NCBI RefSeq assembly: GCF_001864835.1
Contig: NZ_MJGI01000025.1
Location: forward strand, 435,184-499,183
Direction of reading: 5' to 3'
From: Curtobacterium sp. MCBA15_001
GTDB lineage: Bacteria; Actinomycetota; Actinomycetes; Actinomycetales; Microbacteriaceae
DNA length: 64,000 nucleotides
Every line of letters starts with the position of its first letter. Within the stretch, counting starts at the first letter, position 1. Position numbers and translations under genes: made by a program. A model generated the notes under the pieces. The model saw nothing but the letters and a program-made list of their open reading frames with translations. It was not told the origin of the DNA and ran no database searches. This document shows positions 12,809 through 55,637 of the stretch, piece by piece.

Positions 12809-12814
12809 GGACCG

Positions 12815-12875: not shown

Positions 12876-12881
12876 GACGGG

Positions 12882-13427: not shown

Positions 13428-13474
13428 CGCGGTCAGCCGGCGCTGACGCGGTCGGGGTCAGCCGGCGCTGACGC
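13412..13474. repeat. Triplicated 19-bp unit at the junction of two convergent genes
   Basis: A 19-bp unit containing GTCAGC...GCTGAC occurs at 13412-13430, 13431-13449 and 13456-13474. The first copy carries the stop of the upstream plus-strand gene and the third the stop of rel. Each unit is itself an inverted repeat. Confidence 0.75.
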
Positions 13475-15791: not shown

Positions 15792-15860
15792 GCTGCGCCT
15801 CCAGGGACCTGATCCGACAACACTACGCGCGTCGGGTCAGTGCTCGTGACCGCGTTCGCC

Positions 15861-16184: not shown

Positions 16185-16189
16185 GGTGA

Positions 16190-18924: not shown

Positions 18925-19019
18925 CGGTCGTCTCGTCTTTCTGTCAGATCTGTCGGCGCGCACGCCGGCGGAAGCGGTGTCACCGCCGGGTCACGGTCGT
19001 GTCCCGGCGGCCCGGTGGA

Positions 19020-41459: not shown

Positions 41460-42422
41460 TCATCGGGCGTGGACGTCGAGGCCGTCCACCGCGGCGAGGA
41501 CGTCTGCGGGGTGCACGGCGAGGATCGCGGGGTCGGGTTCCTCGGAGAACACGTCGCCACGGCGGACCGAGGCGTCGGTGAGGACGACGTGCGGTCCCGA
41601 CGCCGGCGGGCCCCACGACTCCGGCGGTGCCGGGCCGAAGAGCACGACCGAGGGGATGCCGTACGCGGACGCCAGGTGCGCAGCGCCGGTGTCGACCGTG
41701 ACCACGAGCCGCGCAGCGGCGACGACCGCGGCGAACGGCTGCAGGTCGAGCACCCCGGCCAGGACCGCCGACGGCGCCAGCCCGGCCGTCTCGGCGACTG
41801 CGGCGGCGCGCTCGACGTCCTCCGAGCCTCCCGTCAGGACCACCTGGTGGCCGCGCTCCTGGAGCCCGCGCACCACGGCGGCGAAGCGGTCGACGGGCCA
41901 GTGCCGCGCACCGTGGAAGGCCCCCACGTGCACGACGGCCGCGTCGGCGACGACCGGCGGCTCGACCGGGCGGTCGATCGCGACGTCGTCAGCGTCGCCC
42001 GGGATGCCGTGGGCCGCGAGCAACCGGACCCAGCGCTCGCGTTCGTTCACCGGTCCCTCGATCCAGGTCGGGCCGTCGGCGCCGCCGTGCCCGATCACCC
42101 GGCGGGCACCGAGTGCCGCGACGAGCCCCTCGGACTCCGGCCCGGCGCCGTGCAGGTTGACCGCGACGTCGGTCACCCCGGCCGGCACCGGGATCGGGTG
42201 GTCGAAACCCTGTTGCGCCAGGTGCACGTCCACGGCGGGCAGCAGCTCGACCACGGGGGCGAGCCACGCGGTGGTCGCGAGGCTGATGCGGTGGTCCGGG
42301 AAGGCCCGGCGCAGGGCACGCAGCGCCGGGACGGCCACCAGCAGGTCGCCGAGCTTGATGGCACGGAGCACCACGAGCTCGGGGCGGCCGTCGGACGGGG
42401 GCAGGGAGTCGAGGGCGGTCAC
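41460..42422 (-). CDS. Glycosyltransferase family 9 (heptosyltransferase-type) 1
   Basis: This 320-residue GT-B enzyme resembles ADP-heptose:LPS heptosyltransferases. The N-terminal acceptor domain starts LVVLRAIKLGDLLVAVPAL, and the donor domain has VDTGAAHLASAYGIPSVVLFGP, the GT9 nucleotide-heptose signature. The donor is probably an NDP-heptose given the heptose genes alongside; the acceptor is unknown. The start is GTG 42422, 7 nt after a TACCGT box, so leaderless translation is likely; the frame is open well upstream over gmhB. It is transcribed away from the main cluster. Confidence 0.92.
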   Translation of the reverse strand: MTALDSLPPSDGRPELVVLRAIKLGDLLVAVPALRALRRAFPDHRISLATTAWLAPVVELLPAVDVHLAQQGFDHPIPVPAGVTDVAVNLHGAGPESEGLVAALGARRVIGHGGADGPTWIEGPVNERERWVRLLAAHGIPGDADDVAIDRPVEPPVVADAAVVHVGAFHGARHWPVDRFAAVVRGLQERGHQVVLTGGSEDVERAAAVAETAGLAPSAVLAGVLDLQPFAAVVAAARLVVTVDTGAAHLASAYGIPSVVLFGPAPPESWGPPASGPHVVLTDASVRRGDVFSEEPDPAILAVHPADVLAAVDGLDVHAR

Positions 42423-42429
42423 GGACCCG

Positions 42430-42435
42430 ACGGTA
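42430..42435 (-). promoter_or_regulatory. -10 box of the first GT9 gene
   Basis: TACCGT on the minus strand ends 7 nt before the GTG start at 42422. Confidence 0.5.
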
Positions 42436-42482
42436 GCCGCGTCGCCCCGGCGCGCGACCAGCACCGCGTTCGCCGACCTTCC

Positions 42483-42494
42483 TGGACCGGTCCA
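42483..42494. promoter_or_regulatory. 12-bp palindrome between divergent glycan genes
   Basis: TGGACCGGTCCA is a perfect palindrome in the 98-nt spacer between the GT9 gene and gmhB. It is a candidate operator for the glycan locus. Confidence 0.35.
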
Positions 42495-42520
42495 CGGTCG
42501 GGCACCGGTATGCCGAGCAC

Positions 42521-43072
42521 ATGGCCCTCTCCGCGGACCGCCCCGTCGGCGGTCTCCTCTTCGACCGCGACGACACCCTCGTGATCGACGTCCCGTACAA
42601 CGCCGACCCGCACCGGGTCGTCCCCGTGCCCGGCGCACGTCGGGCGGTGCAGGCAGCCCGGGAGGCCGGGCTGCCGGTCGGGGTCGTGACGAACCAGTCC
42701 GTGATCGCCCGGGGCGGCGCGACGCGCGAGCAGGTCGACGCGACGAACGCGCGGGTCGACGAACTCGTCGGACCCTTCGCGGTGTGGTGCGTCTGCCCGC
42801 ACGGACCCGAGGACGACTGCCCCTGCCGGAAGCCCCGCCCGGGACTGGTGCTGCAGGCGGCCGAGCGGCTCGGCGTGCCGGCGAGCGACCTCGTCGTGAT
42901 CGGCGACATCGGGGCGGACGTCGGCGCTGCGCTCGCGGCCGGCGCGCAGGCGATCCTGGTGCCGACCCCACGGACCAGGCCGGAGGAGGTCGATGCAGCC
43001 CAGACGGTGGCGGCGACGATCGAGGAGGCCGTGGCCCTGGCGCTGCAGCACGTCCCCGCGGCCACGCCGTGA
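42521..43072 (+). CDS. gmhB: D-glycero-D-manno-heptose 1,7-bisphosphate phosphatase GmhB
   Basis: This 183-residue HAD-IIIA phosphatase removes the C7 phosphate of heptose 1,7-bisphosphate. The HAD nucleophile motif is FDRDDTL at about 14-20, motif II is the VVTNQS stretch, and the zinc loop [17 protein letters not shown] is the GmhB/histidinol-phosphatase hallmark; motif III-IV is [13 protein letters not shown]. Histidinol-phosphate phosphatase is the main alternative, but gmhA and hldE in the same locus settle the role. The stop overlaps the next GTG by 4 nt. First plus-strand gene of the heptose cluster. Confidence 0.9.
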
Positions 43073-44175
43073 CCCGGGTGCTCGTCGCCCGCCTCGACTC
43101 GTTCGGCGACGTCCTGGTGTGCGGCCCGGCGATCCGCGCGGTGGCAGCGGGAGCGGCACACGTGACGCTGCTCTGTGGACCGCAGGGCGCCCCGGCGGCC
43201 GACCTGCTGCCCGGGGTCGACCGGGTGCGGGTGTGGGGAGCGCCCTGGGTCACGGAGTCCGCGCGGCCGCTCGACGACGACGCGCTGCAGGCGTTCCGGG
43301 CGCTGGTCGCCGAGGAGCAGGTGGACGAGGCCGTCGTGCTCACCTCGTTCCACCAGTCGCCGCTCCCCCTGGCGGTGCTGTTGCGGCTGGCCGGGGTCGC
43401 CCGGGTCAGCGGAGCGTCCGTCGACCACCCCGGATCGCTGCTCGACGTCCGGCTCCGGCCCGGCGAGGACCTGCCCGAGGACCTGCCCGAACCCGAGCGG
43501 GCACTGCGGATCGCGCAGGCCGCGGGATTCGCGCTGCCGGCGGGCGACGACGGGAGGCTCGTCGTGCGTCACAACGCCGTCGCGCCACCCGAGGTGCGTG
43601 CGCTGGAACGGTACGTGGTCGTCCACCCGGGCGCGAGCGTCCCGGCGCGCTCGTGGCCGCCCGAGCACCACCGCGCACTCGTCGCCCGGTACCGCGAGCT
43701 CGGCATCCCGGTGGTCGTCACCGGCTCCCCCGGCGAACGCGCGCTGACGGCGCACGTCGCTGGGACCGCGTCCGGCACGGGAGCCGACACGGAGGGCGGC
43801 ACGCCGGTGCTCGACCTCGGCGGACGCACCAGTCCGGCCGAACTCGCCGCGGTGCTCGCCGGCGCCGAGGTCGTCGTCGTCGGCAACACCGGTCCCGCGC
43901 ACCTGGCCGCCGCCGTCGGGGCGCCGATCGTCAGCCTGTTCTCCCCGGTGGTGCCCGCCGTGAAGTGGGCGCCGTACACCGACCGGGTGGAACTGCTCGG
44001 CGACCAGGGTGCCGCGTGCCGGCTCAGTCGCGCCCGCGAGTGCCCGGTCGCCGGCCACCCGTGCCTGTCCTCGGTGACCCCCGACGACGTGCTCGCCGCG
44101 CACGCGCGGCTCGTCCGTCGCGCACAGTGGATGAAGCCGAGCAGTCTGCGAACTGCTCCAGAAGCTCCTCGGTAG
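43069..44175 (+). CDS. Glycosyltransferase family 9 (heptosyltransferase-type) 2
   Basis: This 368-residue GT-B protein is a second GT9 enzyme. It begins [20 protein letters not shown], the usual GT9 opening, and the donor-binding block is [21 protein letters not shown] short variable insert rich in Thr and Gly (about 238-252) precedes it. GTG 43069 overlaps the gmhB stop, so the two are translationally coupled; the open frame upstream is antisense to other genes. A heptose donor is likely, by context. Confidence 0.92.
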
Positions 44176-44247
44176 CGTGCGGCACTGCTTCTCCTGCTCC
44201 CGCTGCTGACCGCCCGGTCCGCGGGGAACCCGACCGAAAGGGACCGC

Positions 44248-45246
44248 ATGCGGATCCTCGTCTGGCACGTCCACGGCGGCTGGATGGACGCCTTCGTCCG
44301 CGGCCAGCACGAGTACCTCGTCCCCACCACCGCGGCTCGCGACGGATGGGGCCTCGGCACCGGCGGCCGCGACTGGCCGAACGTCGTCGAGATCGCCCCC
44401 GAGGACGTCGCCGACGCCGGGGTCGACCTGGTCGTCCTGCAGCGCACCGACGAGGCCGAGGCCGCCGCCACCCTGCTCGGCGGACGACAGGTGCCCACCG
44501 TGTTCGTCGAGCACAACGCCCCCCGCATCGACGTCCCGGACAGCCAGCACCCGTTCCGCGACCACCCGGACATGGTGATCGCGCACGTGACGCACTGGAA
44601 CGCGCTGATGTGGGACTGCGGCACCGCGCGGACCACGGTCGTCGAACACGGCGTCGTGGACCCCGGCCCGCTCTACACCGGCCGGCTCGAGCGCTTCGCC
44701 GCCGTCATCAACGAACCGGTCCGCCGCAACCGCGTCGTCGGCACCGACCTGCTCCCCCGCTTCGCCGAGGTCGCCCCGGTCGACGTGTTCGGCATGGGCA
44801 CCGAGCGGCTCGCCGACCTCGGGCACGGCGACCGCCTGGTCGGGCTCGGCGACGTCGCGCCGGACCCCATGCACGCCGCGCTCGCCGAACGCCGCGCCTA
44901 CCTGCACCCGAACCGGTGGACCTCGCTCGGGCTCTCGCTCATCGAGGCGATGCACCTGGCGATGCCCGTCCTGGTCCTGGCGACGACCGACGCGGCGCGC
45001 ACCGTGCCCGCCGAGGCCGGCGCGATCGCGACCGACGTGGCGGAGCTGACCCGAACCTCCCGGCTGCTGCTCGACGACCCGGACGAAGCGCGCCGTCGTG
45101 GTGCCGTCGCCCGGGAGGCCGCGCTCGCACGGCACTCGCTCGCCCGGTTCCTCGGCGACTGGGACGCGCTGCTCGACGACGTCGTGACGCGCCACCGGCG
45201 CGGACGGCACAACCCGAGTCCCGCTCTCGAAGGGAGCACCCGATGA
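44248..45246 (+). CDS. GT4-type glycosyltransferase
   Basis: This 332-residue protein has the GT-B arrangement of family 4 enzymes. It starts [16 protein letters not shown]; the donor domain shows [24 protein letters not shown], the place of the E-x7-E nucleotide-sugar motif. The N-terminal domain is shorter than usual. AAAGGGA lies before the ATG. Its stop overlaps the next ATG by 4 nt (ATGA). It probably adds a sugar to the same glycan as its neighbours; donor and acceptor are unknown. Confidence 0.87.
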
Positions 45247-46544
45247 AGATCGCGATGGTCTCCGAACACGCCAGTCCGCTCGCCGCGCTCGGCGGCGTCG
45301 ACGCCGGCGGTCAGAACGTACACGTCGCCGCGCTGTCCGCCGCGCTCGCCGACCGCGGGCACCGGGTGACGGTGTACACCCGCCGAGACGACGCCGACCT
45401 GCCCACCCGGGTGTCGCTCCGACCGGGTGTCGAGGTCGTGCACGTCGACGCCGGACCGGCACGCACGGTGTCGAAGGACGAGCTCTTCCCGTACATGGCC
45501 ACGTTCGCGCAGGTCCTGGCGGCCGAGTGGTTCGTCGACCGGCCGGACGTCGTGCACGGGCACTTCTGGATGTCCGGGCACGCCGCGCTCGAAGCCGTCG
45601 GGCACGTCCAGGCCCGGACCGGTGGCGTCCGGATCCCGGTCGTGCAGACCTTCCACGCGCTCGGCGTGGTGAAGCGCCGCCACCAGGGATCCGCCGACAC
45701 CAGCCCCGAGGAGCGCACCTGGGTGGAACCCGCGGTCGGTCGCGGCGTGGACCAGGTCGTCGCGACGTGCTCCGACGAGGCGTTCGAGCTCAAGGCGCTC
45801 GGCGTCCCGCTCCACGCCATCTCCGTCGTGCCGTGCGGCGTCGACGTCGACCGGTTCCTGCCGACCGGCCCCGTCGAGGAGCGCACCCGGACGCACCGGG
45901 TGCTCACCGCGTCGCGCCTGGTGCGCCGCAAGGGGGTCGGCACGACGATCGCCGCCCTCGCCCGACTCGTCGAGGCCGGACGCGACGTCGAACTCGTCGT
46001 GGTCGGCGGTGCCGGGACCGCCGGTGCCGACCTGGCCGACGACCCCGAGTACCAGCGGCTCGACGCCCTGGCGCGCTCGCTCGGCGTCCGCGACCACGTG
46101 TCCTTCCGCGGCCAGCTCGGCCAGGACGCGATGCCCGCCGTGTACCGGAGTGCCGACGTCGTCGTCTGCGCGCCGTGGTACGAGCCGTTCGGGATCGTGC
46201 CACTCGAGGCGATGGCCTGCGGACGGCCGGTCGTCGCCTCGCAGGTCGGCGGTCTGATCGACACGGTCGTCGAGGACGCCACCGGGCTGCACGTCCCGCC
46301 GCGCGACGAGGACGCGGTCGCCGCTGCCGTCGCCGGCCTGCTCGACGACCCGGCGCGGGCCCGCGCCTACGGTACCGCCGGCCGCGAGCGGGTCGAGGCC
46401 CGCTACGCGTGGACCCGCGTCGCCGCCGACACCGAGCGCGTCTACGAGCGCCTGGTCGCCGCCTCCAGCACGTTCCCCACGATGACCACGACGTCGAGCG
46501 GTGCCGCACGCCCCGCCCGCGCCACCGAGAGGACCGCACGATGA
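45243..46544 (+). CDS. GT4 glycosyltransferase (sucrose synthase/MshA-like fold)
   Basis: This 433-residue enzyme opens [28 protein letters not shown], the glycine-rich loop of GT4 enzymes such as MshA and sucrose-phosphate synthase. The donor motif E-x7-E is in [20 protein letters not shown]. Mycothiol synthesis (MshA) is an alternative, but the surroundings are all heptose genes. The C-terminal 20 residues are a Thr/Ala/Arg tail. It overlaps both neighbours by 4 nt, so it is in the core operon running from 44248 to 48615. Confidence 0.88.
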
Positions 46545-47203
46545 CCATCGACCAGAGCACACTCGGCACCACCGGGGACACGCTCGGCACCACCGAGCAG
46601 CGGCGCTCCACCGAGCAGCGGCGCGACAGCACCCGGGCCGTGCTCGACCACGTCGCCGCATCGGTGCCGGTCGTGGCCTCGCTCGTCGACCACGGTGAGC
46701 ACATCGCAGCATGGGCGGACGACATCGCCGCGCGGCTCGTCGCCGGACGCCGCCTGCTCGCGGCGGGCAACGGCGGCTCGGCGGCCGAGGCGCAGCACCT
46801 CACCTCCGAGCTGACCGGCCGCTTCGACGGTGACCGTCCGGCGTACTCGGCGATCTCGTTGCACGCCGAGACCTCCGCCGTCACCGCGATCGGCAACGAC
46901 TACGGCTTCGACGAGGTGTTCGCCCGCCAGGTCCGCGCACACGCCCGTGCCGGGGACGTCGTCGTGCTCCTGAGCACGAGCGGCCGGAGCCCGAACCTGC
47001 TGCGCGCCGCGGAGGCTGCCCGCACGGCCGGGGCCCGCACCATCGCGATGACGGGGGCGCGGCCGAACCCGCTCGCCGACGCCGTGGACGACGCGATCTG
47101 CATCGACGGACCGTCCGCGAACGTGCAGGAGGCGCAGCTCGTCCTGGTGCACGCGCTCTGCCGGGCGATGGAACCAGCACTCCGACGCGGGGGCCGCCGA
47201 TGA
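46541..47203 (+). CDS. gmhA: Sedoheptulose 7-phosphate isomerase GmhA
   Basis: This 220-residue SIS-domain protein converts sedoheptulose 7-phosphate to D-glycero-D-manno-heptose 7-phosphate, the first heptose step. The SIS phosphosugar site reads [22 protein letters not shown] and [10 protein letters not shown]; the catalytic Glu and His (E and H in AEAQH and in the C-terminal [13 protein letters not shown]) are present. The first 35 residues are a repetitive extension formed by two in-frame duplications. It overlaps both neighbours by 4 nt, upstream of hldE. Confidence 0.93.
46562..46623. repeat. Two nested in-frame duplications at the gmhA 5' end
   Basis: CTCGGCACCACCG recurs with a 21-bp period (46562, 46583) and ACCGAGCAGCGGCG with an 18-bp period (46592, 46610). 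Both periods are multiples of three, so the reading frame is kept. Confidence 0.7.
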
Positions 47204-48615
47204 GCGCCGGGGCGGCTGCACCCGAGTCGGGCTCGCGACTCCGGATCGCCGTCGTCGGCGACACCCTGCTCGACGTCGACGTCAGCGGCACCAGCGAACG
47301 CCTCAGCCCGGACGCCCCGGTGCCGGTGGTCGACGTCCGCACCGACGAGCGTCGAGCGGGCGGGGCCGGACTCGTCGCGACGATGCTCGCGAAGGACGGC
47401 CACGACGTCACCCTCGTCACCGTGCTGAGCGAGGACGTCCACGCCGCCGAGCTCCGCGCCCTCCTGCCCGACGTCCACATCGTCGCGGGTCCGTCCGGCG
47501 TCGCGACGCCCGTCAAGACCCGGGTCCGCGTCGGCGAGCACGCCCTCGTCCGGATCGACGAAGGCTGCGACACCCCGCCGGTGCCCGACGTCACGGCCGA
47601 GATGACCGCGGTCCTGTCCCAGGTCGACGCCGTCGTGGTGGCCGACTACGGTCGCGGGGTCGCCGCCGCCCCCGACCTGCGCGCGGCCCTGGGTGCCGTC
47701 AGCGAGCACACCCCGGTCGTCTGGGACCCGCACCCGAAGGGCGCCTCCCCCGTGCCCGGCACCACCGTCGCGACGCCGAACGCCGCCGAGGCCCGACGCT
47801 TCACCGGCCTGCCCGGCACCGGCGTCCCGTTCGCCACCGACGCCGCCGCCGCACTGGTCGACACCTGGGACGTCGGCGCGGTCGCCGTCACGCTCGGTGA
47901 CCGTGGTGCACTGGTCGGCCGACGCACCGCACGCGGGATGGACGCGCGGTTCCTGCCGGCACCCTCCGTCACCGCAGGTGACCCCTGCGGTGCCGGCGAC
48001 CGTCTGGCTGCCGGTGTCGCCGTCGCACTGGCCCGGGGCGCCGACGTGCCCGACGCCGTCGCCGCCGGTGTCGCGGACGCCTCGGCGTACCTGGCAGCCG
48101 GCGGCGTCGCCTCCCTGCTCGCCGACGCAGCGCCTGCCGTGGTCGCCGTACCGGGAGCCGACCGCGACGCCCTGCGGGTCGTGCACCGGGTCCGGGCGGA
48201 CGGCGGCACCGTCGTCGCGACCGGCGGGTGCTTCGACCTGCTGCACGCCGGACACGCCCGCACCCTGTCGGCAGCGCGGGCCCTCGGCGACTGCCTGGTC
48301 GTGTGCCTGAACTCGGACGACTCGGTCCGGACCCTCAAGGGCCCCGAGCGGCCGATCATGACCCAGGACGACCGCGTCGAGCTGCTGTTGGCGCTGGACT
48401 GCGTCGACGCCGTCGTGGTGTTCGACGAGACCACGCCGGACGAGGCCCTGCGCCGCTTCCGTCCCGACGTCTGGGCGAAGGGCGGCGACTACACCGCCGA
48501 CGAACTGCCCGAGTCGCGCACGATCGCCGAGTGGGGCGGCCGTGTCGTCACGGTGCCGTTCCACCCCGGACGCTCGACCACCCGACTGGCGTCCGCCCTC
48601 GCCGCCGTCGGCTGA
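47200..48615 (+). CDS. hldE: Bifunctional heptose 7-phosphate kinase/heptose 1-phosphate nucleotidyltransferase HldE 1
   Basis: This 471-residue fusion has an N-terminal PfkB/ribokinase kinase (GDTLLDVD at about 19-26; catalytic GAGD in GDPCGAGDR) and a C-terminal nucleotidyltransferase with FDLLHAGHA and the RPIMTQDDR and KGGDY motifs. It should phosphorylate C1 of heptose 7-phosphate and, after GmhB, add a nucleotide (ADP in known pathways). The kinase domain is diverged: GGAGLVATML stands where canonical HldE has GGAANVA. It overlaps gmhA by 4 nt. A second, more canonical HldE is at 52324. Confidence 0.9.
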   Translation: MSAGAAAPESGSRLRIAVVGDTLLDVDVSGTSERLSPDAPVPVVDVRTDERRAGGAGLVATMLAKDGHDVTLVTVLSEDVHAAELRALLPDVHIVAGPSGVATPVKTRVRVGEHALVRIDEGCDTPPVPDVTAEMTAVLSQVDAVVVADYGRGVAAAPDLRAALGAVSEHTPVVWDPHPKGASPVPGTTVATPNAAEARRFTGLPGTGVPFATDAAAALVDTWDVGAVAVTLGDRGALVGRRTARGMDARFLPAPSVTAGDPCGAGDRLAAGVAVALARGADVPDAVAAGVADASAYLAAGGVASLLADAAPAVVAVPGADRDALRVVHRVRADGGTVVATGGCFDLLHAGHARTLSAARALGDCLVVCLNSDDSVRTLKGPERPIMTQDDRVELLLALDCVDAVVVFDETTPDEALRRFRPDVWAKGGDYTADELPESRTIAEWGGRVVTVPFHPGRSTTRLASALAAVG

Positions 48616-48656
48616 GCACGCGCCCCACACACCTGATCCACCTCGAAAGGAACTCC

Positions 48657-49361
48657 ATGCCCGTCCCCACCACCCCCATCGGCCGCGTCCTCGTCACCGG
48701 CGGCGCCAGCGGACTCGGAGCGGCCGTCGTCGACGCCGTGCTCGAGGCCGGCGGCACCCCCATCGTCCTCGACCTCCGGGTCGAGGGCGTCGCCGACGGG
48801 GTCGACGCGGTCGCGGTCGACGTGACGGACACCGCAGCGACGGAACAGGCCGTCCGCGACGCCGCCGAGCGGCACGGCGGCCTCGACGCGGTCGTCACCG
48901 CCGCCGGCATCGACAAGCCCGCCCCGATCGGCGGCCTCTCCGCCACCGACTGGGAGCAGATCGTCGGCGTCAACCTGCTCGGGACTGCAGCCGTCGTGCG
49001 CGCGGCGCTGCCGACGCTCACGGAGAACCGTGGCCGCGTCGTCACGATCGCGTCCTCGCTGGCGCTCCGCGGTGTCGGCGACGGCACCGCGTACTCGGCG
49101 TCGAAGTTCGGCGTCCGCGGGTTCTCGCAGGCGCTCGCCGCCGAGACCGCCGGGTCCGTCGGCGTCACGAACGTGATCCCGGCCGGGATGCGGACGAACT
49201 TCTTCGCCGACCGCACCGAGCAGTACAAGCCCGGTCCGGACGCGCTGCTGATCGAGCCGTCGTACGTCGCGAACGCGATCCTGTTCGCGCTGGCGCAGCC
49301 GGCCGGCTGCGAGATCCGCGAGATGTCGATCATGCCCGCCACGGAGCCCAGCTGGCCCTGA
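48657..49361 (+). CDS. Short-chain dehydrogenase/reductase
   Basis: This 234-residue classical SDR has the cofactor loop TGGASGLG (about 15-22), the catalytic Ser in IASSLAL, and Tyr-x3-Lys in YSASK. It is too short and of the wrong subclass to be the HldD epimerase, which is an extended SDR of about 310 residues. It may reduce or oxidise a sugar nucleotide or its lipid carrier intermediate. GAAAGGA is well placed before the ATG, 41 nt after hldE. It is followed by a 54-bp perfect palindrome. Confidence 0.88.
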   Translation: MPVPTTPIGRVLVTGGASGLGAAVVDAVLEAGGTPIVLDLRVEGVADGVDAVAVDVTDTAATEQAVRDAAERHGGLDAVVTAAGIDKPAPIGGLSATDWEQIVGVNLLGTAAVVRAALPTLTENRGRVVTIASSLALRGVGDGTAYSASKFGVRGFSQALAAETAGSVGVTNVIPAGMRTNFFADRTEQYKPGPDALLIEPSYVANAILFALAQPAGCEIREMSIMPATEPSWP

Positions 49362-49370
49362 ACGCAGGCC

Positions 49371-49424
49371 CGTGACGGACGGGAGGCTCGGTGCCAGCTG
49401 GCACCGAGCCTCCCGTCCGTCACG
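49371..49424. repeat. Perfect 54-bp palindrome (family copy 1)
   Basis: The two 27-bp halves (49371-49397, 49398-49424) are exact reverse complements with no spacer. The core GGTGCCAGCTGGCACC and the flanks CGGGAGG/CCTCCCG recur at 53827-53864. It lies after the SDR stop and before the convergent GT9 gene, and can act as terminator for the SDR transcript. Confidence 0.85.
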
Positions 49425-49566
49425 CGCCCGCCCGCCCGCGCGCCCTCTCGAGGTTCCAGAATTCTGGAACCCGCGGGCGGCGCACCGGCCGTCTGTGACA
49501 CCGCAGCGATGCTCCCGCGGCGCGTCGTGGAACCTCACGACGGGCGCGCCCGACCCGCACCGCCGC

Positions 49567-50667
49567 TCAGCGGGTACGGAGCAGGTCCTCGACGTCGGCG
49601 AGCACGGCCTCGGGCGCGACCTCGTCGACGTAGGACGGGTCGTGCTCGCACCGCTCGGCGGTCCACCCGACCTGGGTGACGTCGACGCCGCACACCGGGC
49701 ACCGCGTCACGAAGGACATGTGCACCCGGTGCCGGCCGCGGTCGAGCGGCCCGGCGTTGACGACGTTGCCGAACCAGAACACCCCGACCGTCATCGTGCC
49801 GACCGCCACGGCCAGGTGTCGCGGACCGGAGTCGTCGCCGACCATGACGTCCGCTGCCCCGAGGACTGCGGGCAGCTCGCGCAGCGGCAGGGTCCCGACC
49901 ACGTCGTGGAGACGAGCCACCTGGTCGGCGTCGAGCTGGTCGCGGACCTCGCTCACGATGGCGTCGGCGGCCGGTCGGTCGGAGTCGTCCCCGACGAGCA
50001 CCACGTCGTCGCCAGCAGCCAACCGTGCCAGTGCTACGGCGGCGAACCGCTCCGGGCTCCACCGGCGCCGGGGATCGGTGGCGCCGGGGTGCATCGCGAC
50101 GAGCGTGCGGGCGACGCCGAGGCGGGTGCGGACGGCGGTGCGCTCCTCGTGGGACACCGTGACGCGGGGGTCGAGCGTGACCGGTGCGGCACCGGCCAGC
50201 GCTGCGACCTCGAGCCCGCGCAGCACCTCGTGCTGGTAGTAGACGTAGCGGACCCACCGTTCCAGCACCTCGGCGTCCTCGGTCGCGGTGCCGATCGTGT
50301 GCCGTGCGCCCAGCCGGAGCAGGAACGGGTTCGAGTTCCGGCCGCCGCCGTGCAGTTGCACCGCGAGGTCGAACCGTCCGTCGAGCCGTCGTACGAAGTC
50401 GTCCAGGGTCGGCGCGTCGGATCCGGAGTCGCGGACCCCGGGGTGCACGGGCAACTCCTCGAAGGCGTGCACGGCGTCGGTCCGGCCGGCGAGCAGGGCC
50501 TCGGCGGCGGGAGTCCCGAGCAGCGTGATCCGGGCGTCGGGGTAGGCGGCTGCCAGCGCCTCGATCGCGGGCACGGCGAACATCAGGTCCCCCAGCCCGC
50601 CGCCCCGGAGCACCGCGATCTCGCGGACCCCCTCGAACCGGTCGCCGCCCTTGCCGATGAGATGCAC
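49567..50667 (-). CDS. Glycosyltransferase family 9 (heptosyltransferase-type) 3
   Basis: This 366-residue GT9 protein has the opening EIAVLRGGGLGDLMFAVPAIEAL and the donor-side VGDDSGPRHLAVAVGTMTV block. The C-terminal 60 residues carry a four-cysteine cluster (RCPVC...AERCEHD) that may bind zinc, absent from the other two GT9 proteins. I start at GTG 50667 (VHLIGKGGD) with AGGAG upstream; the frame is open further over the ALDH gene. It is divergent from ALDH-hldE2 across 157 nt. Confidence 0.9.
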   Translation of the reverse strand: MHLIGKGGDRFEGVREIAVLRGGGLGDLMFAVPAIEALAAAYPDARITLLGTPAAEALLAGRTDAVHAFEELPVHPGVRDSGSDAPTLDDFVRRLDGRFDLAVQLHGGGRNSNPFLLRLGARHTIGTATEDAEVLERWVRYVYYQHEVLRGLEVAALAGAAPVTLDPRVTVSHEERTAVRTRLGVARTLVAMHPGATDPRRRWSPERFAAVALARLAAGDDVVLVGDDSDRPAADAIVSEVRDQLDADQVARLHDVVGTLPLRELPAVLGAADVMVGDDSGPRHLAVAVGTMTVGVFWFGNVVNAGPLDRGRHRVHMSFVTRCPVCGVDVTQVGWTAERCEHDPSYVDEVAPEAVLADVEDLLRTR

Positions 50668-50824
50668 GGTGCCTGTCTCCTGTCGTCTCGAGTTCCCCCT
50701 GTGTACCGGCGACCACCCGTGAACGCACTCGTCAGCCGCGGAGCGCGGACCTCGTGACCGCGCCCAGGCGTCGAGGAGCAGCGTCGGCACCCACCCCTCG
50801 GACCGATGTCCCGGAAGGACGCGC

Positions 50825-52327
50825 ATGACGCTCGAAGCCCCCACCACGACCACCGAGATCGTCGTCCTGGACCCGGTCACCGGGTCGGTCGCATCGACCA
50901 CGACGGTCGCGACACCCGAGCAGGTCCACGACGCCGTGACCCGCGCCCGCACGGCCTTCGGCACCTGGTCACGCACGGCACCCGCGGACCGTGGCGCCCT
51001 GCTCCGCACGGCCGCCGAGCACCTGCGCGCCCACGCCGACGAACTCGCGGAGCTCAACACGCGCGAGACCGGCAAGGTCCCGGGCGACGCACTCGGTGGG
51101 GTCGAGGCCGGCATCGGGACGCTGCTGCAGTACGCCGAACTCGGTCCGCTCCACCGCGGCGAGGCCCTGCGCGGACAGCACGGCGCCGCCGACTGGACGA
51201 TCCCGCACCCGCGCGGCGTGGTGCTCGCCCTGACGCCGTGGAACGACCCGGTGGCGGTCGCACTCGGCATCCTCGGCGCCGCGATCGTCACGGGCAACAC
51301 CGTCGTGCACAAGGGCAGCGAGCGGTGCCCGGCCACGATCGCCCGGCTCAACGCGCTGCTCGCCGAGGTCCTGCCCGACGGCGTGCTCGTCGGGGTCGAC
51401 GGCGACGCCAGCACGGGCGAGGCGCTGCTCGCCCAGGACGGCATCGCGGTCTACGCCCACGTCGGGTCCACGGCCACCGGCGACCGGCTGTCGACCGTCG
51501 CTGCGACGACCCGTGCGCACGTGGTCCGCGAGAACGGCGGGAACGACGCGATCGTCGTCGACGCCGACGTCGATCCGGTGTGGGCCGCCGGTCAGGCCGC
51601 CCTGGGGGCCTTCGCCAACACCGGGCAGATCTGCACGAGCGTCGAGCGGGTGTACGTGCACCGCGCGGTCGCCGACGCCTTCGTCGAGGCACTCGTCGCC
51701 GAGGCCGACCGTCGGACCGCGCTGCCCGCGGCCGAGTACGGACCCCTGGTCGACGAGCGGCTCCGGTCCCTCGTGCAGGACCACGTCGACGACGCCGTCG
51801 CCCGCGGTGCCCGCGTCCGGACCGGCGGCTCGGTGCCCCAGGGCCCCGGCACCGCGTACCCGGCCACCGTGCTCACCGACGTGCCGGACGACGCCCTGAC
51901 GATGGTCGAGGAGACCTTCGGCCCGATCGCACCGGTCCGCGTGGTCGACTCCTTCGACGAGGGGCTCCGGCTCGCCGCCGGGGACCGCTACGGACTCGCC
52001 GCGACCGTGCTGACCAACGACACCGGTGCCGCGCTCCGGGCCGCTGCGGAGCTGCCGGTCGGGACGGTGAAGGTGAACGCCGTGTTCGGCGGGGCTCCCG
52101 GTGGCAGCGCCGAGCCGCGCGGCGCCTCGGGCTCGGGCTTCGGCTACGGTCCGCACCTGCTGGACGAGATGACCACGACGACGGTCGTCCACCTCGAAGC
52201 GGCACCGACACCGCGGGTGACACCGGACACCGGCACCGGCACCGGCACCGCCGTTGCCGACGCAGGCACGGCCGCCGGCACCACCGCCGCGACCGGAACC
52301 GCCGCCGCCGAGGGCTTCGACCGATGA
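50825..52327 (+). CDS. Aldehyde dehydrogenase with low-complexity tail
   Basis: This 500-residue NAD(P)-dependent enzyme oxidises an aldehyde to an acid. The catalytic cysteine is in NTGQICTS, the general-base glutamate in RENGGND, and the cofactor-site TPWNDPVAVAL is present. ENGG instead of the usual ELGG and KGSE in place of KPSE make it a diverged member, near semialdehyde/benzaldehyde dehydrogenases. The last 50 residues are a Thr/Gly/Ala repeat tail with no fold. GGAAGGA precedes the ATG. It overlaps hldE2 by 4 nt, so a sugar-derived substrate is possible. Confidence 0.88.
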   Translation: MTLEAPTTTTEIVVLDPVTGSVASTTTVATPEQVHDAVTRARTAFGTWSRTAPADRGALLRTAAEHLRAHADELAELNTRETGKVPGDALGGVEAGIGTLLQYAELGPLHRGEALRGQHGAADWTIPHPRGVVLALTPWNDPVAVALGILGAAIVTGNTVVHKGSERCPATIARLNALLAEVLPDGVLVGVDGDASTGEALLAQDGIAVYAHVGSTATGDRLSTVAATTRAHVVRENGGNDAIVVDADVDPVWAAGQAALGAFANTGQICTSVERVYVHRAVADAFVEALVAEADRRTALPAAEYGPLVDERLRSLVQDHVDDAVARGARVRTGGSVPQGPGTAYPATVLTDVPDDALTMVEETFGPIAPVRVVDSFDEGLRLAAGDRYGLAATVLTNDTGAALRAAAELPVGTVKVNAVFGGAPGGSAEPRGASGSGFGYGPHLLDEMTTTTVVHLEAAPTPRVTPDTGTGTGTAVADAGTAAGTTAATGTAAAEGFDR

Positions 52328-53805
52328 CCGCCGACGTGCGCCTGGTCCGTGACGTGGTCGCCCGCATCGACGACCGCGAGCCCCTGCTCGTCGTCATCGG
52401 CGACCCGATCCTGGACCGCTGGACCATCGGCGAGGCCGAACGGGTCTCGCGGGAGGCCCCCGCGCCGGTCGTCCGCGTCACCGAGACCATCGCCGTCCCC
52501 GGCGGAGCCGCCAACACCGCGGTGAACGCTCGCGCGCTCGGCGCCCGGGTCCGGATGGTCGGCCTGGTCGGCGACGACGAGGCCGGCGCGGTCCTGCGCG
52601 ACCGTCTGGCGGCAGCGGGGGTCGACACGACCTTCCTGGTGGCCGTCCCCGGTGCGACGACGACCACCAAGTCGCGCATCGTCGGCGGCGACCGGGTCGT
52701 GGTCCGCGTGGACGACCTCGCCGGGACCCCGACCGAGGACCACACCGACCAGCTCGCAGCGGCCGTCGCACGGGCCCTGCACGGTGCCGATGCCGCGGTC
52801 GTCTGCGACTACGGCCTCGGCGTGACGCCGGCCTCGGTGCTGCCCGTGCTCGACCGGGAGCGGCCCGACGTGGTGGTCGTCGACGCGCACGACCTGCGTG
52901 GCTGGCGCGAGCTGCACCCGGACCTCGTCACGCCGAACGCCGGCGAAGCCACGGCGCTGCTCGGCGTCGACCTCGGCACCGGAGCCGACCGGGCTGCCGC
53001 CGTCGTCGCCCAGCGGGAGGCGGTCCTGCGGGAGACCGGGGCCCGAGCCGCCGTCGTCACGCTCGACCGGAACGGCACCGTCCTGCTCGAACCGGGTGAC
53101 GACCAGGCCTTCCGCACCCGCGCGACCCCGGCCTCCGAGCAGCAGGCCTCCGGCGCCGGCGACACGTTCTGCGCCGCGGCGAGCGTCGCCCTGGCGGTCG
53201 GGACGAGTGCCCGCGCGGCCGTGCAGTTCGCCCAGGCCGCCGCCGACGTCGTCGTCCGCGAGGCCGGCACGTCGACGTGCGACACGGCCAGCCTGCTGCG
53301 CTCGGTCGAGGCCCCCGCCGAGACTGTGGTCGACCACGACGACCTGGCCGCCGCCGTCGAGGCCGCGCGCCACCAGGGCCGACGCATCGTCTTCACGAAC
53401 GGGTGCTTCGACGTGGTCCACCGCGGGCACACGTCCTACCTGCGCCAGGCGAAGGAGCTCGGCGACCTGCTGGTCGTCGCGCTGAACGACGACGACTCGG
53501 TCACCCGGCTCAAGGGCCCGGAGCGGCCGATCAACACCGCCGAGGACCGCGCCGGGGTCCTGGCTGCCCTGGCATGCGTCGACCTGGTGACGGTCTTCGC
53601 GACGGACACCCCGATCCCGCTGCTCGAGCGGATCCGCCCGGACGTCTACGTCAAGGGCGGCGACTACTCCCCCGAGATGCTCAGCGAGACCGCGGTCGTC
53701 AGGGCCTACGGCGGCGAGGTCGTCATGGTCGACTACGTCGCCGAGCACTCGACCAGCGCGGTCGTCCGGCGGATCCGCGAGACGTCGGGCGGCGACACCG
53801 GCTGA
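52324..53805 (+). CDS. hldE: Bifunctional heptose kinase/nucleotidyltransferase HldE 2
   Basis: This 493-residue protein is the more canonical HldE: kinase domain with GDPILDRW, PGGAANTAVN and SGAGDTF, then the nucleotidyltransferase domain with TNGCFDVVHRGHTSYL, RLKGPERPIN, VKGGDYSPE and a closing STSAVVRRI. It would phosphorylate heptose 7-phosphate and make NDP-heptose together with gmhA and gmhB upstream. It is only distantly similar to HldE 1, so it is not a recent duplicate. It is coupled to ALDH by ATGA and followed by the second giant palindrome. Confidence 0.93.
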   Translation: MTADVRLVRDVVARIDDREPLLVVIGDPILDRWTIGEAERVSREAPAPVVRVTETIAVPGGAANTAVNARALGARVRMVGLVGDDEAGAVLRDRLAAAGVDTTFLVAVPGATTTTKSRIVGGDRVVVRVDDLAGTPTEDHTDQLAAAVARALHGADAAVVCDYGLGVTPASVLPVLDRERPDVVVVDAHDLRGWRELHPDLVTPNAGEATALLGVDLGTGADRAAAVVAQREAVLRETGARAAVVTLDRNGTVLLEPGDDQAFRTRATPASEQQASGAGDTFCAAASVALAVGTSARAAVQFAQAAADVVVREAGTSTCDTASLLRSVEAPAETVVDHDDLAAAVEAARHQGRRIVFTNGCFDVVHRGHTSYLRQAKELGDLLVVALNDDDSVTRLKGPERPINTAEDRAGVLAALACVDLVTVFATDTPIPLLERIRPDVYVKGGDYSPEMLSETAVVRAYGGEVVMVDYVAEHSTSAVVRRIRETSGGDTG

Positions 53806-53880: not shown

Positions 53881-55569
53881 TCAGCGCACGCGGACCTGCG
53901 TGGCCGCCTGCTTGCCGGACTGCACGCCGGTGAACGTGACCGTCGCGGAACCGGTCTCGGCCTTCCACTGCACCGAGGCGGTGCCGTCGATGACGTCGAC
54001 CGTGCCGAGGTCGGTCGACCCGACCTGCACCCGCACCTGGCGGTCGCCGGCGAAGCGGCTGCCGGTCAGCGTCACCCGCTGCCCGGGCCGGGGCGCGCCG
54101 ACCGACAGGTCGATGCGGGCACCGCGGCTGAGGGCTGCGAGGTCGTCGGTGAGCCGGAGGGAGTCCGACACGGTGAAGAACGTGTCGGTCTGGTCGGTCA
54201 GCCCGACGACGTTCGCCGCGCCGGGGCCGTACGCGGCGATCCGGACCTGGGTACCCGTGTGCTGCTGCGATGCGCCGGCGCCGGAAGTGCCGTACGAGAC
54301 CTTCATCGTGGTGCCGTCAGCGGTCACGAGCGCCGTCGAGAGCGAGGTCGGCGGGGTGTTGTCGACGATCTGGCTCGAGTGGGCGTGGTCCGCCGTCGCG
54401 ATGACGAGCGTGTTGCCGTCCTTCTGGGCGAAGGCCAGCGCTGCCTGCACGGCCTCGTCGAAGTCGATCGTCTCGCCGATCTGTCCGCAGGCGTCGGCCG
54501 CGTGGTCCTGCTTGTCGATGCTCGCGCCCTCGACCTGCAGGAAGAAGCCCTTGCCGTTCGTCTGCGGACGGTTCAGCAGCGAGATCGACTTGTTCGTCAG
54601 GGACGCCAGCGAGAGGCCGGTGTCCAGCCGCGCGGGGTTCGCCGTGCAGCGCACGGCTGCCTTGTCCGCCCCGCCGACCGTCGCGGTGGTGGGCGCGTAG
54701 CGGGTCGGGAAGTTGCCCGGCGTGAACAGCCCCAGGAGCGGCTGCCGCTGGTCGGCGCGGCGGACCGCCGCGAGCTCGGCGGCGTCGTCGACGAGCTGGT
54801 AGCCGCGGGCGGCCGCCTGGTCGAAGAGCGTCTCGCCGGCGTACTGGCCGGCCTTGGCGGTCTGGGTGAAGCTGGTCGAGCCGCCGCCCAGGGTCAGGTC
54901 GGGGCGGGCGTTCAGCAGCTGCTCGCTGATCGAGCCGAGGCCACCGGCCTGCAGCGCGTCGGTGCCGCACGCCGCGGTGTCGGGGCCGTAGCAGCCGCGG
55001 GCGCCGACGTGGGCGACCTGGACGGCCGGGGTGGCGTCCTGGATCTCGGCGGTCGACACGTTGCCGGTGCGCAGGCCGTTCGCCTTCGCCAGCTCGACGA
55101 GGGTCTTCTGCGGGGTGCCGTCGATGTCGACCGAGATGGCCCCGTCGTACGTCTTCGTGCCGGTCGCCCACGCGCTGCCCGACGCTGCCGAGTCCGTGAC
55201 GTAGTCCGGCTTGCCCTTGTCCGCGCCGTCCTTGACGAGCGAGTACGTCGTGTACGACCCGGTGAGCGGCAGGGCGTCCAGGCCCGGCAGCCGACCGGCG
55301 GCGCCGTACTCGTAGTTGCGCGCCACGGTGATCTCGGAGTCACCCATCCCGTCGCCGATGAGCAGGATGACGTTCTCGGCGTTCGCGTTCTTGATCGCCT
55401 GCCGGACGGCCTGCGTCTGGTCACCGACCGCGCGCTGTGCGCCACCGTGCTGGTTGAGCGCCAGCTGGCCGACGGCCTCGGCGGTGCCGGGCAGCGCGAT
55501 CGCGCCGGCGATGAGCAGGGCGCCCAGCGTCATCGCTGTGCGCCGCCGCTTCGGGTGGTGCTGGTCCAT
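53881..55569 (-). CDS. phoA: Secreted alkaline phosphatase (PhoA family)
   Basis: This 562-residue enzyme releases phosphate from organic esters outside the cell. A basic start (HHPKRRR) and hydrophobic core form a signal peptide. Metal and active sites: GDGMGDSE, the Ser nucleophile in [30 protein letters not shown] and QHTGTQ. A C-terminal beta-sandwich-like domain (about 470-562) is extra. I start at ATG 55569 after GAGGGG; an upstream in-frame start at 55608 would spoil the signal peptide. A PHO-box-like repeat lies about 70-97 nt before the ATG, predicting induction by phosphate starvation. Confidence 0.94.
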
Positions 55570-55637
55570 GTCGGTTCCCCTCGTCAGGTGCCCCCGTTCG
55601 GGTGCCATCCGAGGATGGCTGTGTGGGGGTACAGGCA

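What the first reader, a model, noticed from the sequence alone, without database searches (positions are those of the whole stretch)
41460..53805. Heptose-glycan locus in a Gram-positive actinobacterium
Directly visible: gmhB, gmhA, two hldE fusions, three GT9 enzymes, two GT4-type enzymes, an SDR and an ALDH in about 12 kb. GT9 is the LPS heptosyltransferase family, but a cell with this gene content makes no LPS. Known Gram-positive uses of the NDP-heptose route are a few streptomycete antibiotics (septacidin, hygromycin B) whose tailoring genes are absent here. The inferred product is a heptose-bearing surface glycan, glycolipid or glycoprotein modification not tied to a known pathway. NDP-heptoses are also strong ALPK1 ligands, so release could matter to eukaryotic hosts.
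Basis: partly seen in the sequence, partly recalled or inferred. Interest (0 to 1): 0.75.

Follow-up and report, generated by a model that had tools for sequence, protein, structure and literature searches.

The report
Stress-linked heptose sugar gene cluster
A plant- and soil-associated bacterium without an outer membrane carries a conserved gene cluster for making and attaching seven-carbon sugars normally known from Gram-negative cell surfaces, and in many of its relatives the cluster sits beside, and appears to be switched on by, its own stress-type regulator.

Summary
Eleven genes (41460-53805) encode GmhB, GmhA, two HldE fusions, three GT9s, two GT4s, an SDR and an ALDH, with conserved catalytic residues and purifying selection. 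The genome is a Curtobacterium; HldE1 occurs in 61 of 66 genomes of the genus. GT9 and HldE are almost perfectly co-inherited (family: 32 both, 1 GT9 only, 0 HldE only, 166 neither; phylum: 48/11/5/332), so NDP-heptose chemistry is very likely. The surface-glycan reading is only partly supported: a hydropathy scan shows no clear membrane segment in the 11 proteins, and no flippase or polymerase recurs among the flank genes scanned.

Two new points. The locus is composite: a core with HldE1 (STTR5-type nucleotide motif) and a separable module with an anciently distinct HldE2 and GT9c. And in many relatives it sits near a SigB/SigF-type sigma gene largely confined to locus-bearing genomes; a GTTT-N16-GGGAAC-type promoter precedes gmhB or GT9c in 20 of 20 family loci with that sigma and 0 of 10 without. 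Curtobacterium has neither.

Best reading: an NDP-heptose conjugate made at the cytosolic side, ancestrally in a stress regulon. Acceptor and product are unknown.

The parts
41460..42422 (-). GT9a, glycosyltransferase family 9 (core module)
   Evidence: PF01075 88.8 bits; D13 and D261 equivalents kept, K192 is R
42423..42520 (.). 98-bp divergent intergenic region GT9a/gmhB; site of the SigB/SigF-type promoter in many relatives, motif absent here
42521..43072 (+). GmhB-type HAD-IIIA phosphatase
   Evidence: TIGR01662 101.6 bits (cut-off 44.6), PRK08942 GmhB 98.4 bits (cut-off 178); D11, D13 and Zn ligands kept
43069..44175 (+). GT9b, GT9 subfamily with Asn at the WaaC D261 position
   Evidence: PF01075 76.6 bits; N in 54 of 54 rows
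44248..45246 (+). GT4a, divergent family 4 glycosyltransferase
   Evidence: PF13692 and PF13524 over cut-off
45243..46544 (+). GT4b, family 4 glycosyltransferase of the MshA/sucrose-phosphate-synthase type
   Evidence: PF00534 129 bits in the containing ORF; closest solved sequence 6kih Tll1590, 2.2e-66
46541..47203 (+). GmhA-type sedoheptulose-7-phosphate isomerase (SIS)
   Evidence: PF13580; 5i01 3.4e-38; E65 and H180 kept in 51 of 51
47200..48615 (+). HldE1, heptose-7-P kinase / heptose-1-P nucleotidyltransferase with FHPGRSTT (STTR5) motif
   Evidence: TIGR02199 182.7 bits (cut-off 181.5); motif
48657..49361 (+). classical short-chain dehydrogenase/reductase
   Evidence: PF00106 1.4e-38
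49567..50667 (-). GT9c, glycosyltransferase family 9 (module B)
   Evidence: PF01075 80.1 bits; 1psw 3.6e-9
50668..50824 (.). 157-bp divergent intergenic region GT9c/ALDH; second promoter site in relatives, motif absent here
50825..52327 (+). aldehyde dehydrogenase (module B)
   Evidence: PF00171 352.6 bits
52324..53805 (+). HldE2, second and anciently distinct heptose kinase/nucleotidyltransferase, YVAEHSTS in place of the STTR5 motif
   Evidence: TIGR02199 199.9 bits; tree; motif

Best explanation
The locus makes nucleotide-activated D-glycero-D-manno-heptose from sedoheptulose 7-phosphate (GmhA isomerase, HldE kinase, GmhB phosphatase, HldE nucleotidyltransferase) and passes it through GT9 enzymes, together with other sugars added by the two GT4s, onto an acceptor at the cytosolic side of the membrane. 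The SDR and ALDH probably modify the sugar or the acceptor. Because every enzyme looks soluble and no initiating, flipping or polymerising gene belongs to the set, I think the product is a small heptosyl oligosaccharide conjugate (a soluble glycoside or an inner-leaflet glycolipid) rather than a polymer. The locus is composite: a core module (gmhB-GT9b-GT4a-GT4b-gmhA-hldE1-SDR plus GT9a) shared widely in actinobacteria, and an added module (GT9c, ALDH, hldE2). In many relatives a SigB/SigF-type sigma factor, usually encoded beside GT9a, is predicted to switch on the gmhB operon and GT9c from GTTT-N16-GGGAAC-type promoters, so the product most likely belongs to a stress or stationary-phase response. 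Curtobacterium keeps the locus in nearly every species but lacks that sigma gene and its promoters, so here the control is rewired. Shown by computation: gene content, conserved residues, co-inheritance, synteny, sigma/promoter concordance. Inferred: enzyme activities, the sugar, the acceptor, the stress role, and that Curtobacterium lost rather than never had the sigma.
For: Gene content and residues. Co-inheritance of GT9 (E <= 0.001) and HldE: 32 both, 1 GT9 only (its match is below the family cut-off), 0 HldE only, 166 neither in 199 family genomes; 48/11/5/332 in 396 phylum genomes; within 10 kb in at least 43 of 48. Synteny: ten genes in order in 17 of 20 named Curtobacterium-type loci; all 11 genes inside the fetched 20 kb in 20 of 30 family loci; core module in other families. 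HldE1 in 61 of 66 genus genomes. No clear membrane segment by a hydropathy scan. Sigma: found in 23 of 199 family genomes, 21 of them among the 32 locus genomes, 17 of the 21 within 3 kb of GT9a; also beside GT9a in an Arthrobacter plasmid and in a genome of another family. Promoter motif: before gmhB in 19 of 53 loci and GT9c in 14 of 52, before the other nine core genes in 0 of 463; 20 of 20 sigma-bearing family loci against 0 of 10 without; 33 of 43 upstream regions in 22 sigma-bearing loci against about 0.3 expected from shuffles, spacer exactly 16 in 29 of 33.
Against: No chemistry: no heptose has been measured. GmhA, both kinase domains and the GT9s fall below NCBIfam equivalog cut-offs, and GmhB passes a histidinol-phosphatase-domain model (93.4 vs 84.15) but no GmhB model. 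GT9b has Asn where WaaC has D261, in 54 of 54, and HldE1 kinases have GGAGL in place of GGAAN in 46 of 49 rows (Leu for Asn in 49 of 49), so some steps may not be canonical. G008, G125 and G068 have no locus gmhA and only a 36-39% SIS relative elsewhere. In 396 phylum genomes 11 have GT9 without HldE and 5 HldE without GT9. Sigma and promoter are absent from the Curtobacterium genomes and loci examined, so the stress reading is about relatives. Two family genomes have the sigma without the locus, and 11 of 32 have the locus without the sigma. Only about four genera make up the sigma-less set, and three of those ten loci have no gmhB in the fetched stretch and one no GT9c, so the 20/20 against 0/10 contrast is far from 30 independent tests. 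The sigma gene has no such promoter of its own in 21 loci tested, and one of the three motif versions tried (ending GGGTAT) was not enriched. One relative has LytR-CpsA-Psr and sortase genes inserted in the locus, which would fit a wall product.
Confidence: 0.7

Rival explanations
1. One reading: the locus builds a heptose-bearing envelope glycan, lipoglycan or glycoprotein that is exported and displayed, using flippases and ligases encoded elsewhere.
For: GT9 and GT4 enzymes commonly act peripherally on lipid acceptors (known biology, recalled); LytR-CpsA-Psr and sortase genes sit inside one family locus; GT2 domains occur in 5 of 79 flank ORFs of loci outside the family.
Against: No export, polymerase or carrier-initiating gene in the window locus. 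Among 94 family flank ORFs Sigma70 (17) is the only common family, the next has 3, and the only transport family seen twice is an ABC-import-type permease (2 of 94); outside the family an ABC-transporter ATPase occurs in 2 of 79. No clear membrane segment in the 11 proteins.
Confidence: 0.35
2. The enzymes act on other sugars: the SIS, HAD, PfkB and nucleotidyltransferase proteins make a non-heptose nucleotide sugar, and the GT9s transfer that.
For: Most family scores are below equivalog cut-offs; unusual GT9b and HldE1 kinase motifs; a Clavibacter plasmid carries a GT9c-like and a GT4a-like gene with the sigma but no HldE in the 11 kb read.
Against: GmhA E65/H180 in 51 of 51 and GmhB catalytic and zinc residues in at least 49 of 50; both HldE nucleotidyltransferase domains pass the curated heptose cut-off; near-perfect co-inheritance with GT9.
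Confidence: 0.12
3. A secondary-metabolite sugar cassette, of the septacidin, hygromycin B or bleomycin kind.
For: Other families add an NAD epimerase and a carbamoyltransferase; S. fungicidicus has epimerase-carbamoyltransferase-GT-GT4b-SIS-HldE without GT9 nearby. The bleomycin genes blmC-G are described as sugar synthase, carbamoyltransferase, transferase, hydroxylase and epimerase in PMC7017467 (passages seen).
Against: No scaffold-building or nucleoside tailoring gene among the eleven or the flank genes scanned; HldE1 in 61 of 66 Curtobacterium genomes and the same core in several other families, unlike an accessory antibiotic cluster.
Confidence: 0.08
4. The sigma gene and motif are hitch-hiking synteny: they stay near the locus without controlling it.
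For: Where read, the sigma gene lies tail-to-tail with GT9a, not in its operon; linkage alone can persist by descent.
Against: The motif lies strand-specifically before gmhB and GT9c and never before the genes on the other side of the same intergenic DNA (0 of 44, 0 of 45); in the 30 family loci it is absent exactly where the sigma is absent, and present where the sigma is 20-25 kb away or on another contig (L052, L068, L055); 16-nt spacer in 29 of 33.
Confidence: 0.1

Closest known systems
ADP-heptose biosynthesis and LPS inner-core heptosyltransfer (E. coli GmhA, HldE, GmhB, WaaC, WaaF)
   Same: Same four activities by homology and the GT9 family: GmhA 37%, HldE1 33%, HldE2 38%, GmhB 30%, GT9s 23-26% identity to E. 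coli
   Different: No LpxC, no HldD above cut-off, two HldE types, a classical SDR and an ALDH, GT4 partners, all in one locus
[quoted passage not shown] seen only as a reference entry in PMC10948575, text not held)
   Same: NDP-heptose enzymes in actinobacteria; here gmhA and hldE1 are adjacent with a 4-nt overlap
   Different: Separate GmhA and HldE1 proteins here, plus HldE2; I could not read whether that paper describes this locus
NTP-promiscuous heptose nucleotidyltransferases with the STTR5 motif (Tang 2024, through the commentaries PMC11461863 and PMC11573728, main texts read)
   Same: HldE1 has FHPGRSTT, matching (F/L)XXGRSTT
   Different: HldE2 in the same locus has YVAEHSTS; nucleotide use is untested for either
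Septacidin and hygromycin B heptose pathways of Streptomyces (as cited in PMC10221265, passages seen)
   Same: Sedoheptulose 7-phosphate to NDP-heptose in a Gram-positive
   Different: Single-compound antibiotic clusters; no GT9 set or sigma linkage known to me (recalled)
GDP-D,D-heptose route of S-layer glycans and M. tuberculosis GmhA (PMC7705670, passages seen)
   Same: Gram-positive heptose activation starting with GmhA
   Different: Uses HddA and HddC to make GDP-alpha-heptose; the locus here encodes HldE fusions and neither HddA nor HddC
SigB/SigF general-stress sigma regulons of actinobacteria (consensus recalled)
   Same: A linked sigma protein matches SigB/SigF/SigG models (TIGR02980 221.7 bits, just under its cut-off 234.35); promoters GTTT-N16-GGGAAC
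   Different: This sigma type is largely confined to heptose-locus genomes within the family (21 of 23)

Membership tests
NDP-heptose (GmhA-HldE-GmhB) biosynthesis | All four activities encoded, with catalytic residues | tested here: met
   GmhA E65/H180 in 51 of 51; GmhB D11/D13 in 49 of 50 and Zn ligands in 50 of 50; HldE kinase GAGD Asp in 49 of 49 and 44 of 44, HxGH in 47 of 49 and 44 of 44 (gaps otherwise); residue roles recalled
NDP-heptose (GmhA-HldE-GmhB) biosynthesis | Scores above curated heptose-enzyme cut-offs | tested here: inconclusive
   Only the two HldE nucleotidyltransferase domains pass
NDP-heptose (GmhA-HldE-GmhB) biosynthesis | Conversion of sedoheptulose 7-phosphate to NDP-heptose | not testable with these tools
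   needs purified enzymes
GT9 glycosyltransferases | Family membership by sequence profile | tested here: met
   three PF01075 matches over cut-off
GT9 heptosyltransferases | WaaC-like set D13, K192, D261 | tested here: inconclusive
   D13 in 144 of 146 rows; K192 is R in 140 of 141 aligned rows; D261 kept in GT9a (34 of 34 aligned) and GT9c (52 of 52) but N in GT9b (54 of 54); residue roles recalled
LPS inner-core heptosyltransferases (WaaC/WaaF equivalogs) | NCBIfam equivalog score and a lipid A acceptor | tested here: not met
   best scores 61-87 bits against cut-offs 134.6-185.3; no LpxC in the genome
Septacidin/hygromycin-type antibiotic cluster | Scaffold and tailoring genes for the antibiotic next to heptose genes | tested here: not met
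   nearest flanks are USP, GDSL lipase, PRC-barrel and alkaline phosphatase; the rest of the window was not searched for such genes
GDP-D,D-heptose S-layer route | HddA kinase and HddC guanylyltransferase | tested here: not met
   the locus encodes HldE fusions instead; the rest of the genome was not searched for HddA/HddC
SigB/SigF-type regulon (relatives) | Linked sigma gene and matching promoters at the operon heads | tested here: met
   binding and transcription untested
SigB/SigF-type regulon (window genome) | Same sigma and promoters present | tested here: not met
   no match in G000, G031, G105, G163; no motif before gmhB or GT9c in the window or the 20 named loci where those starts could be read
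STTR5 promiscuous heptose nucleotidyltransferases | (F/L)XXGRSTT motif | tested here: met
   HldE1 FHPGRSTT; R at that position in 44 of 49 rows; HldE2 has H in 38 of 44

The most novel reading that the evidence does not exclude
Monoderm actinobacteria possess a dedicated stress-induced heptose system: a private SigB/SigF-type sigma factor drives an operon that makes two different nucleotide-heptose donors (HldE1 giving CDP/UDP/ADP-heptose, HldE2 another) for distinct GT9 enzymes, and the product is a protective heptosyl conjugate rather than a surface polymer. This would be a physiological role for the non-ADP heptoses, whose roles PMC11573728 calls elusive.
Probability: 0.3. Interest if true: 0.8.

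Novelty: new variant of a known kind. Interest (0 to 1): 0.62.

Why it matters
Heptose has been studied mostly as an LPS sugar and as the source of ALPK1 agonists. Here is a widely spread, co-inherited heptose-and-transferase locus in bacteria with no LPS, with a predicted private sigma factor and well-defined promoters in many relatives. That makes a long-standing question (what do bacteria without LPS use heptose for?) directly testable: induce the sigma, look for the heptose compound, delete the locus. It also means NDP-heptoses, which vertebrate ALPK1 senses, are probably made by common plant and soil actinobacteria. Two HldE types with different nucleotide-site motifs in one locus offer a natural comparison of ADP- against CDP/UDP-heptose use.

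Tried and rejected
Tried without gain: a sigma-70 and terminator scan of the locus found nothing. Closest solved sequences for the SDR and ALDH were not found at the strict limits I set; I did not repeat with looser limits. Paper searches. Their listings showed no paper on this locus, but none of them asked for a sigma factor together with heptose, so I make no claim that the sigma link is unpublished. Two key papers (Tang 2018, Tang 2022) were not held.

Considered and rejected: recent duplication of hldE (the two types are separate clades with 100/100 support, 20 rows each; E. coli sits on a long branch, so its placement is unsure). Chance co-occurrence of GT9 and HldE. LPS remnant (no LpxC). 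Strict two-donor separation as a general rule: in G053 and G179 HldE1 lacks its nucleotidyltransferase domain, so HldE2 must cover that step there.

Rows dropped or partial: in the HldE alignment rows of 560 aa or more were left out, in the GT9 alignment rows under 40% identity to the window or of 480 aa or more. In the sigma/promoter table 30 of the 32 locus-bearing family genomes were used (G000 and G109 were not among the fetched 20-kb stretches; the window was scanned separately and has no motif). Three of the ten sigma-less loci (L062, L072, L073) have no gmhB in the fetched stretch and L056 no GT9c; one search counts 0 of 7 and 0 of 9 upstream regions for them. The GT9-HldE distance count used positions copied from the printed tables; 43 genomes were shown within 10 kb, the other 5 of 48 were not shown to be. 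Flank family counts used 79 of 98 and 94 of 226 flank ORFs, called by a simple script. An earlier count said HldE1 in 62 of 66; on recount one of these (G651, 73% complete) shows only the HldE2-like match, so HldE1 is in 61 of 66, one of them in two contig-end pieces (G604) and one as a fragment (G635). The notebook entry counts 16 of 20 named loci; the recount gives 17 of 20. That same entry says HldE1 GGAGLVA in all 49; the output gives GGAGL in 46.

Full report
What is there. The window lies in a 3.78 Mb, 27-contig genome. The second HldE is 92% identical to Curtobacterium sp. Leaf183 and 73-92% to the other 19 records found, all named Curtobacterium or Microbacteriaceae, so the organism is a Curtobacterium (Microbacteriaceae). 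They run as a divergent pair GT9a(-)/gmhB(+), then gmhB-GT9b-GT4a-GT4b-gmhA-hldE1-SDR on the + strand, then a second divergent pair GT9c(-)/ALDH(+) followed by hldE2. Five neighbouring pairs overlap by 4 nt (gmhB-GT9b, GT4a-GT4b, GT4b-gmhA, gmhA-hldE1, ALDH-hldE2). The flanks (universal stress protein, GDSL lipase, PRC-barrel; alkaline phosphatase) are not part of the conserved set: in the loci compared from outside the genus they do not accompany it.

Are they heptose enzymes? By sequence, yes. GmhA matches solved phosphoheptose isomerases (5i01, 3.4e-38) and E65 and H180 are kept in 51 of 51 orthologues; GmhB keeps D11 and D13 in 49 of 50 and its zinc ligands in 50 of 50 (roles of these residues recalled). 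HldE2 matches a solved heptose-7-phosphate kinase (4e84, 9.8e-25) and a cytidylyltransferase (5x9q, 1e-38). Only the HldE nucleotidyltransferase domains pass NCBIfam heptose cut-offs. GmhA, the kinase domains and the GT9s score below theirs; GmhB passes the broad HAD-IIIA model and the histidinol-phosphatase-domain model (93.4 against 84.15 bits) but scores below cut-off with GmhB models (98.4 against 178), and much lower with HisB (24.0).

Genetic linkage of donor and transferase. In 199 genomes of the window's family, PF01075 was found in 33 (32 over cut-off) and TIGR02199 in 32; all 32 HldE genomes have GT9, one GT9 genome lacks HldE (its match is below cut-off), 166 have neither. In 396 genomes across the phylum: both 48, HldE only 5, GT9 only 11, neither 332; in at least 43 of the 48 the two lie within 10 kb. 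Genomes share ancestry, so the Fisher values (3e-36 and 3e-45) overstate independence. Within the genus 62 of 66 genomes have an HldE match, and HldE1 itself is in 61; three of the four genomes without any match are over 90% complete. The ten genes tested are under purifying selection (dN/dS 0.12-0.28 by NG86 against C. luteum and Curtobacterium sp. GC_Cur_3).

Two modules. In other families the core gmhB-GT9b-GT4a-GT4b-gmhA-hldE1(-SDR)-GT9a occurs without GT9c/ALDH/hldE2 nearby and in 8 loci with a carbamoyltransferase, in 7 with an NAD epimerase as clustered. The annotated Streptomyces sp. CA-256286 plasmid shows epimerase, carbamoyltransferase, GT, HAD, GT9, GT, GT, SIS, rfaE2, GT9, GT, GT in a row. 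Nonomuraea gerenzanensis has the core at one place and a divergent HldE2/GT9c pair (48% and 47%) about 7.9 Mb away in the coordinates of its circular 11.85 Mb record. In the 20 kb read of G068, GT9a, GT9c and hldE2 occur without the core genes. The HldE1 and HldE2 proteins form separate clades with 100/100 support (20 rows each). HldE1 typically ends in (F/Y)HPGRSTT, with Arg at the fifth position in 44 of 49 rows; HldE2 typically has YVxEHST(S/T), with His there in 38 of 44 and Arg in 3. The commentaries PMC11461863 and PMC11573728 (main texts read) report that Arg in (F/L)XXGRSTT marks nucleotidyltransferases that also make CDP- and UDP-heptose, and that the motif is not strictly needed; so HldE1 is predicted promiscuous, and HldE2 not on this criterion. 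Against a strict two-donor rule, in G053 and G179 HldE1 lacks its nucleotidyltransferase domain.

The transferases. GT9a and GT9c keep the WaaC D13 and D261 positions (two GT9c rows differ at D13; six GT9a rows have gaps at D261); GT9b keeps D13 but has Asn at D261 in 54 of 54; K192 is Arg in 140 of 141 aligned rows. GT4b is nearest, among solved sequences, to Tll1590 (6kih, 2.2e-66), which I recall as a sucrose-phosphate synthase, and then to 3c4q and 3c48, named only 'predicted glycosyltransferases' there, while by NCBIfam it is nearest MshA (231.5 bits, cut-off 462.5). Both enzyme kinds use small phosphorylated acceptors (recalled). A hydropathy scan shows no clear membrane segment in the eleven; one ALDH window slightly exceeds the threshold.

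A sigma factor that travels with the locus. Clustering of ORFs in 40 fetched loci showed one unlabelled gene family near GT9a in 18 of them; the members scanned are SigB/SigF-type sigma factors. Among 94 family flank ORFs, Sigma70 domains occur in 17 and the next family in 3. Searching 199 family genomes with one of these sigma proteins gave 23 genomes, 21 of them among the 32 locus-bearing ones (Fisher 2e-18); G003 and G123 have it without the locus, and 11 locus genomes lack it. In 17 of the 21 it lies within 3 kb of GT9a (tail-to-tail where the loci were read), in 3 it lies 20-25 kb away, in 1 on another contig. The same arrangement exists in an Arthrobacter plasmid and in a genome of another family of the order; a genome of another family in the class has an RsbW-like gene plus sigma gene about 2.5 kb from GT9a.

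Matching promoters. I scanned for the SigB/SigF consensus as I recalled it, in three versions. The strict version gave 15 hits against 2-7 in shuffles, the loose version GTT(T/A)-N13-18-GGG(T/A)A 56 against 11-21, and the GGGTAT version 1 against 1-7. The loose version was then used for the placement test: it lies before gmhB (19 of 53 loci) and GT9c (14 of 52) and before none of the other nine genes (0 of 463), including GT9a (0 of 44) and ALDH (0 of 45), which share the same intergenic DNA on the other strand. Of 30 family loci, 20 of 20 with the sigma have the motif and 0 of 10 without it do (Fisher 3e-8); the ten are four genera, and four of them could be tested at one gene only. In 22 sigma-bearing loci (20 of the family plus L074 and L087) 33 of 43 upstream regions have it against about 0.3 expected, with a 16-nt spacer in 29 of 33 and consensus GTTT-N16-GGGAAC; in sigma-less loci 0 of 7 and 0 of 9. 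Where the sigma gene is 20-25 kb away or on another contig the motif is still there (L052, L068, L055), so it is not mere adjacency. The sigma gene itself has no such site upstream in the 21 loci tested; a site lies before the RsbW-like gene in L078 and before the sigma gene of a Clavibacter plasmid.

Curtobacterium is the exception. The sigma was not found in the four Curtobacterium genomes searched or near the locus in the 20 named loci, and the motif is absent from the window and the named loci, although the locus is kept in nearly all species. The stress reading is therefore inferred from relatives; how the window's locus is controlled is not known.

Interpretation. I take it as likely that the locus makes and transfers NDP-heptose, and as likely that in many relatives this is under a linked stress-type sigma factor. 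What carries the heptose is open. The absence of membrane, export and polymer genes favours a small conjugate, but glycolipids modified at the inner leaflet, with unlinked flippases, remain possible, and one locus has LytR-CpsA-Psr and sortase genes inserted.

Novelty. [quoted passage not shown] The composite two-HldE arrangement and the sigma/promoter linkage did not appear in the listings of my paper searches, but those did not ask for the sigma link. I rate it a new variant of a known kind.

Noticed in passing
L094 (Clavibacter californiensis plasmid pCCa) 107-8633: A plasmid-borne variant: a GT9c-like gene (36%), a GT4a-like gene (50%), an epimerase and a related sigma gene with a GTTT-N16-GGGTA site just upstream of it, but no HldE in the 11 kb read.
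   Followed up: partly
L090 7090-11050: Burkholderia multivorans plasmid carries GT9, a DUF4254 protein and a second GT9 (40% to GT9c), near CBS-domain, DUF2934 and flavohemoprotein genes.
   Followed up: no
L053 4387-8635: LytR-CpsA-Psr and sortase genes inserted between GT9c and SDR in one family member.
   Followed up: no
L033 866-8600: In Curtobacterium sp. MCBD17_013 extra genes, including an aldo/keto reductase, separate SDR, GT9c and ALDH.
   Followed up: partly
L055, L070: HldE1 reduced to its kinase domain in G053 and G179 while HldE2 is intact.
   Followed up: partly
L088 7219-14407: Streptomyces fungicidicus plasmid: epimerase, carbamoyltransferase, two GTs, SIS and HldE with no GT9 or GmhB relative in the 27 kb read; a possible GT9-independent variant.
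   Followed up: no
L087 (Arthrobacter sp. StoSoilB13 plasmid) 7363-18983: The sigma gene plus ten of the eleven genes (no ALDH relative found) on a 1.0 Mb plasmid, so nearly the whole set can sit on a plasmid.
   Followed up: yes
L091 (Streptomyces sp. CA-256286 plasmid) 618-23612: The annotated locus is surrounded by STAS, GAF-ANTAR, PP2C-type phosphatase, CBS and CsbD genes, which look like general-stress genes.
   Followed up: no
window 53881-55608: Alkaline phosphatase (677.6 bits against NF007810 cut-off 540) directly after the locus in the window, near it in 4 of 20 named loci, and in none of the 40 loci.
   Followed up: no
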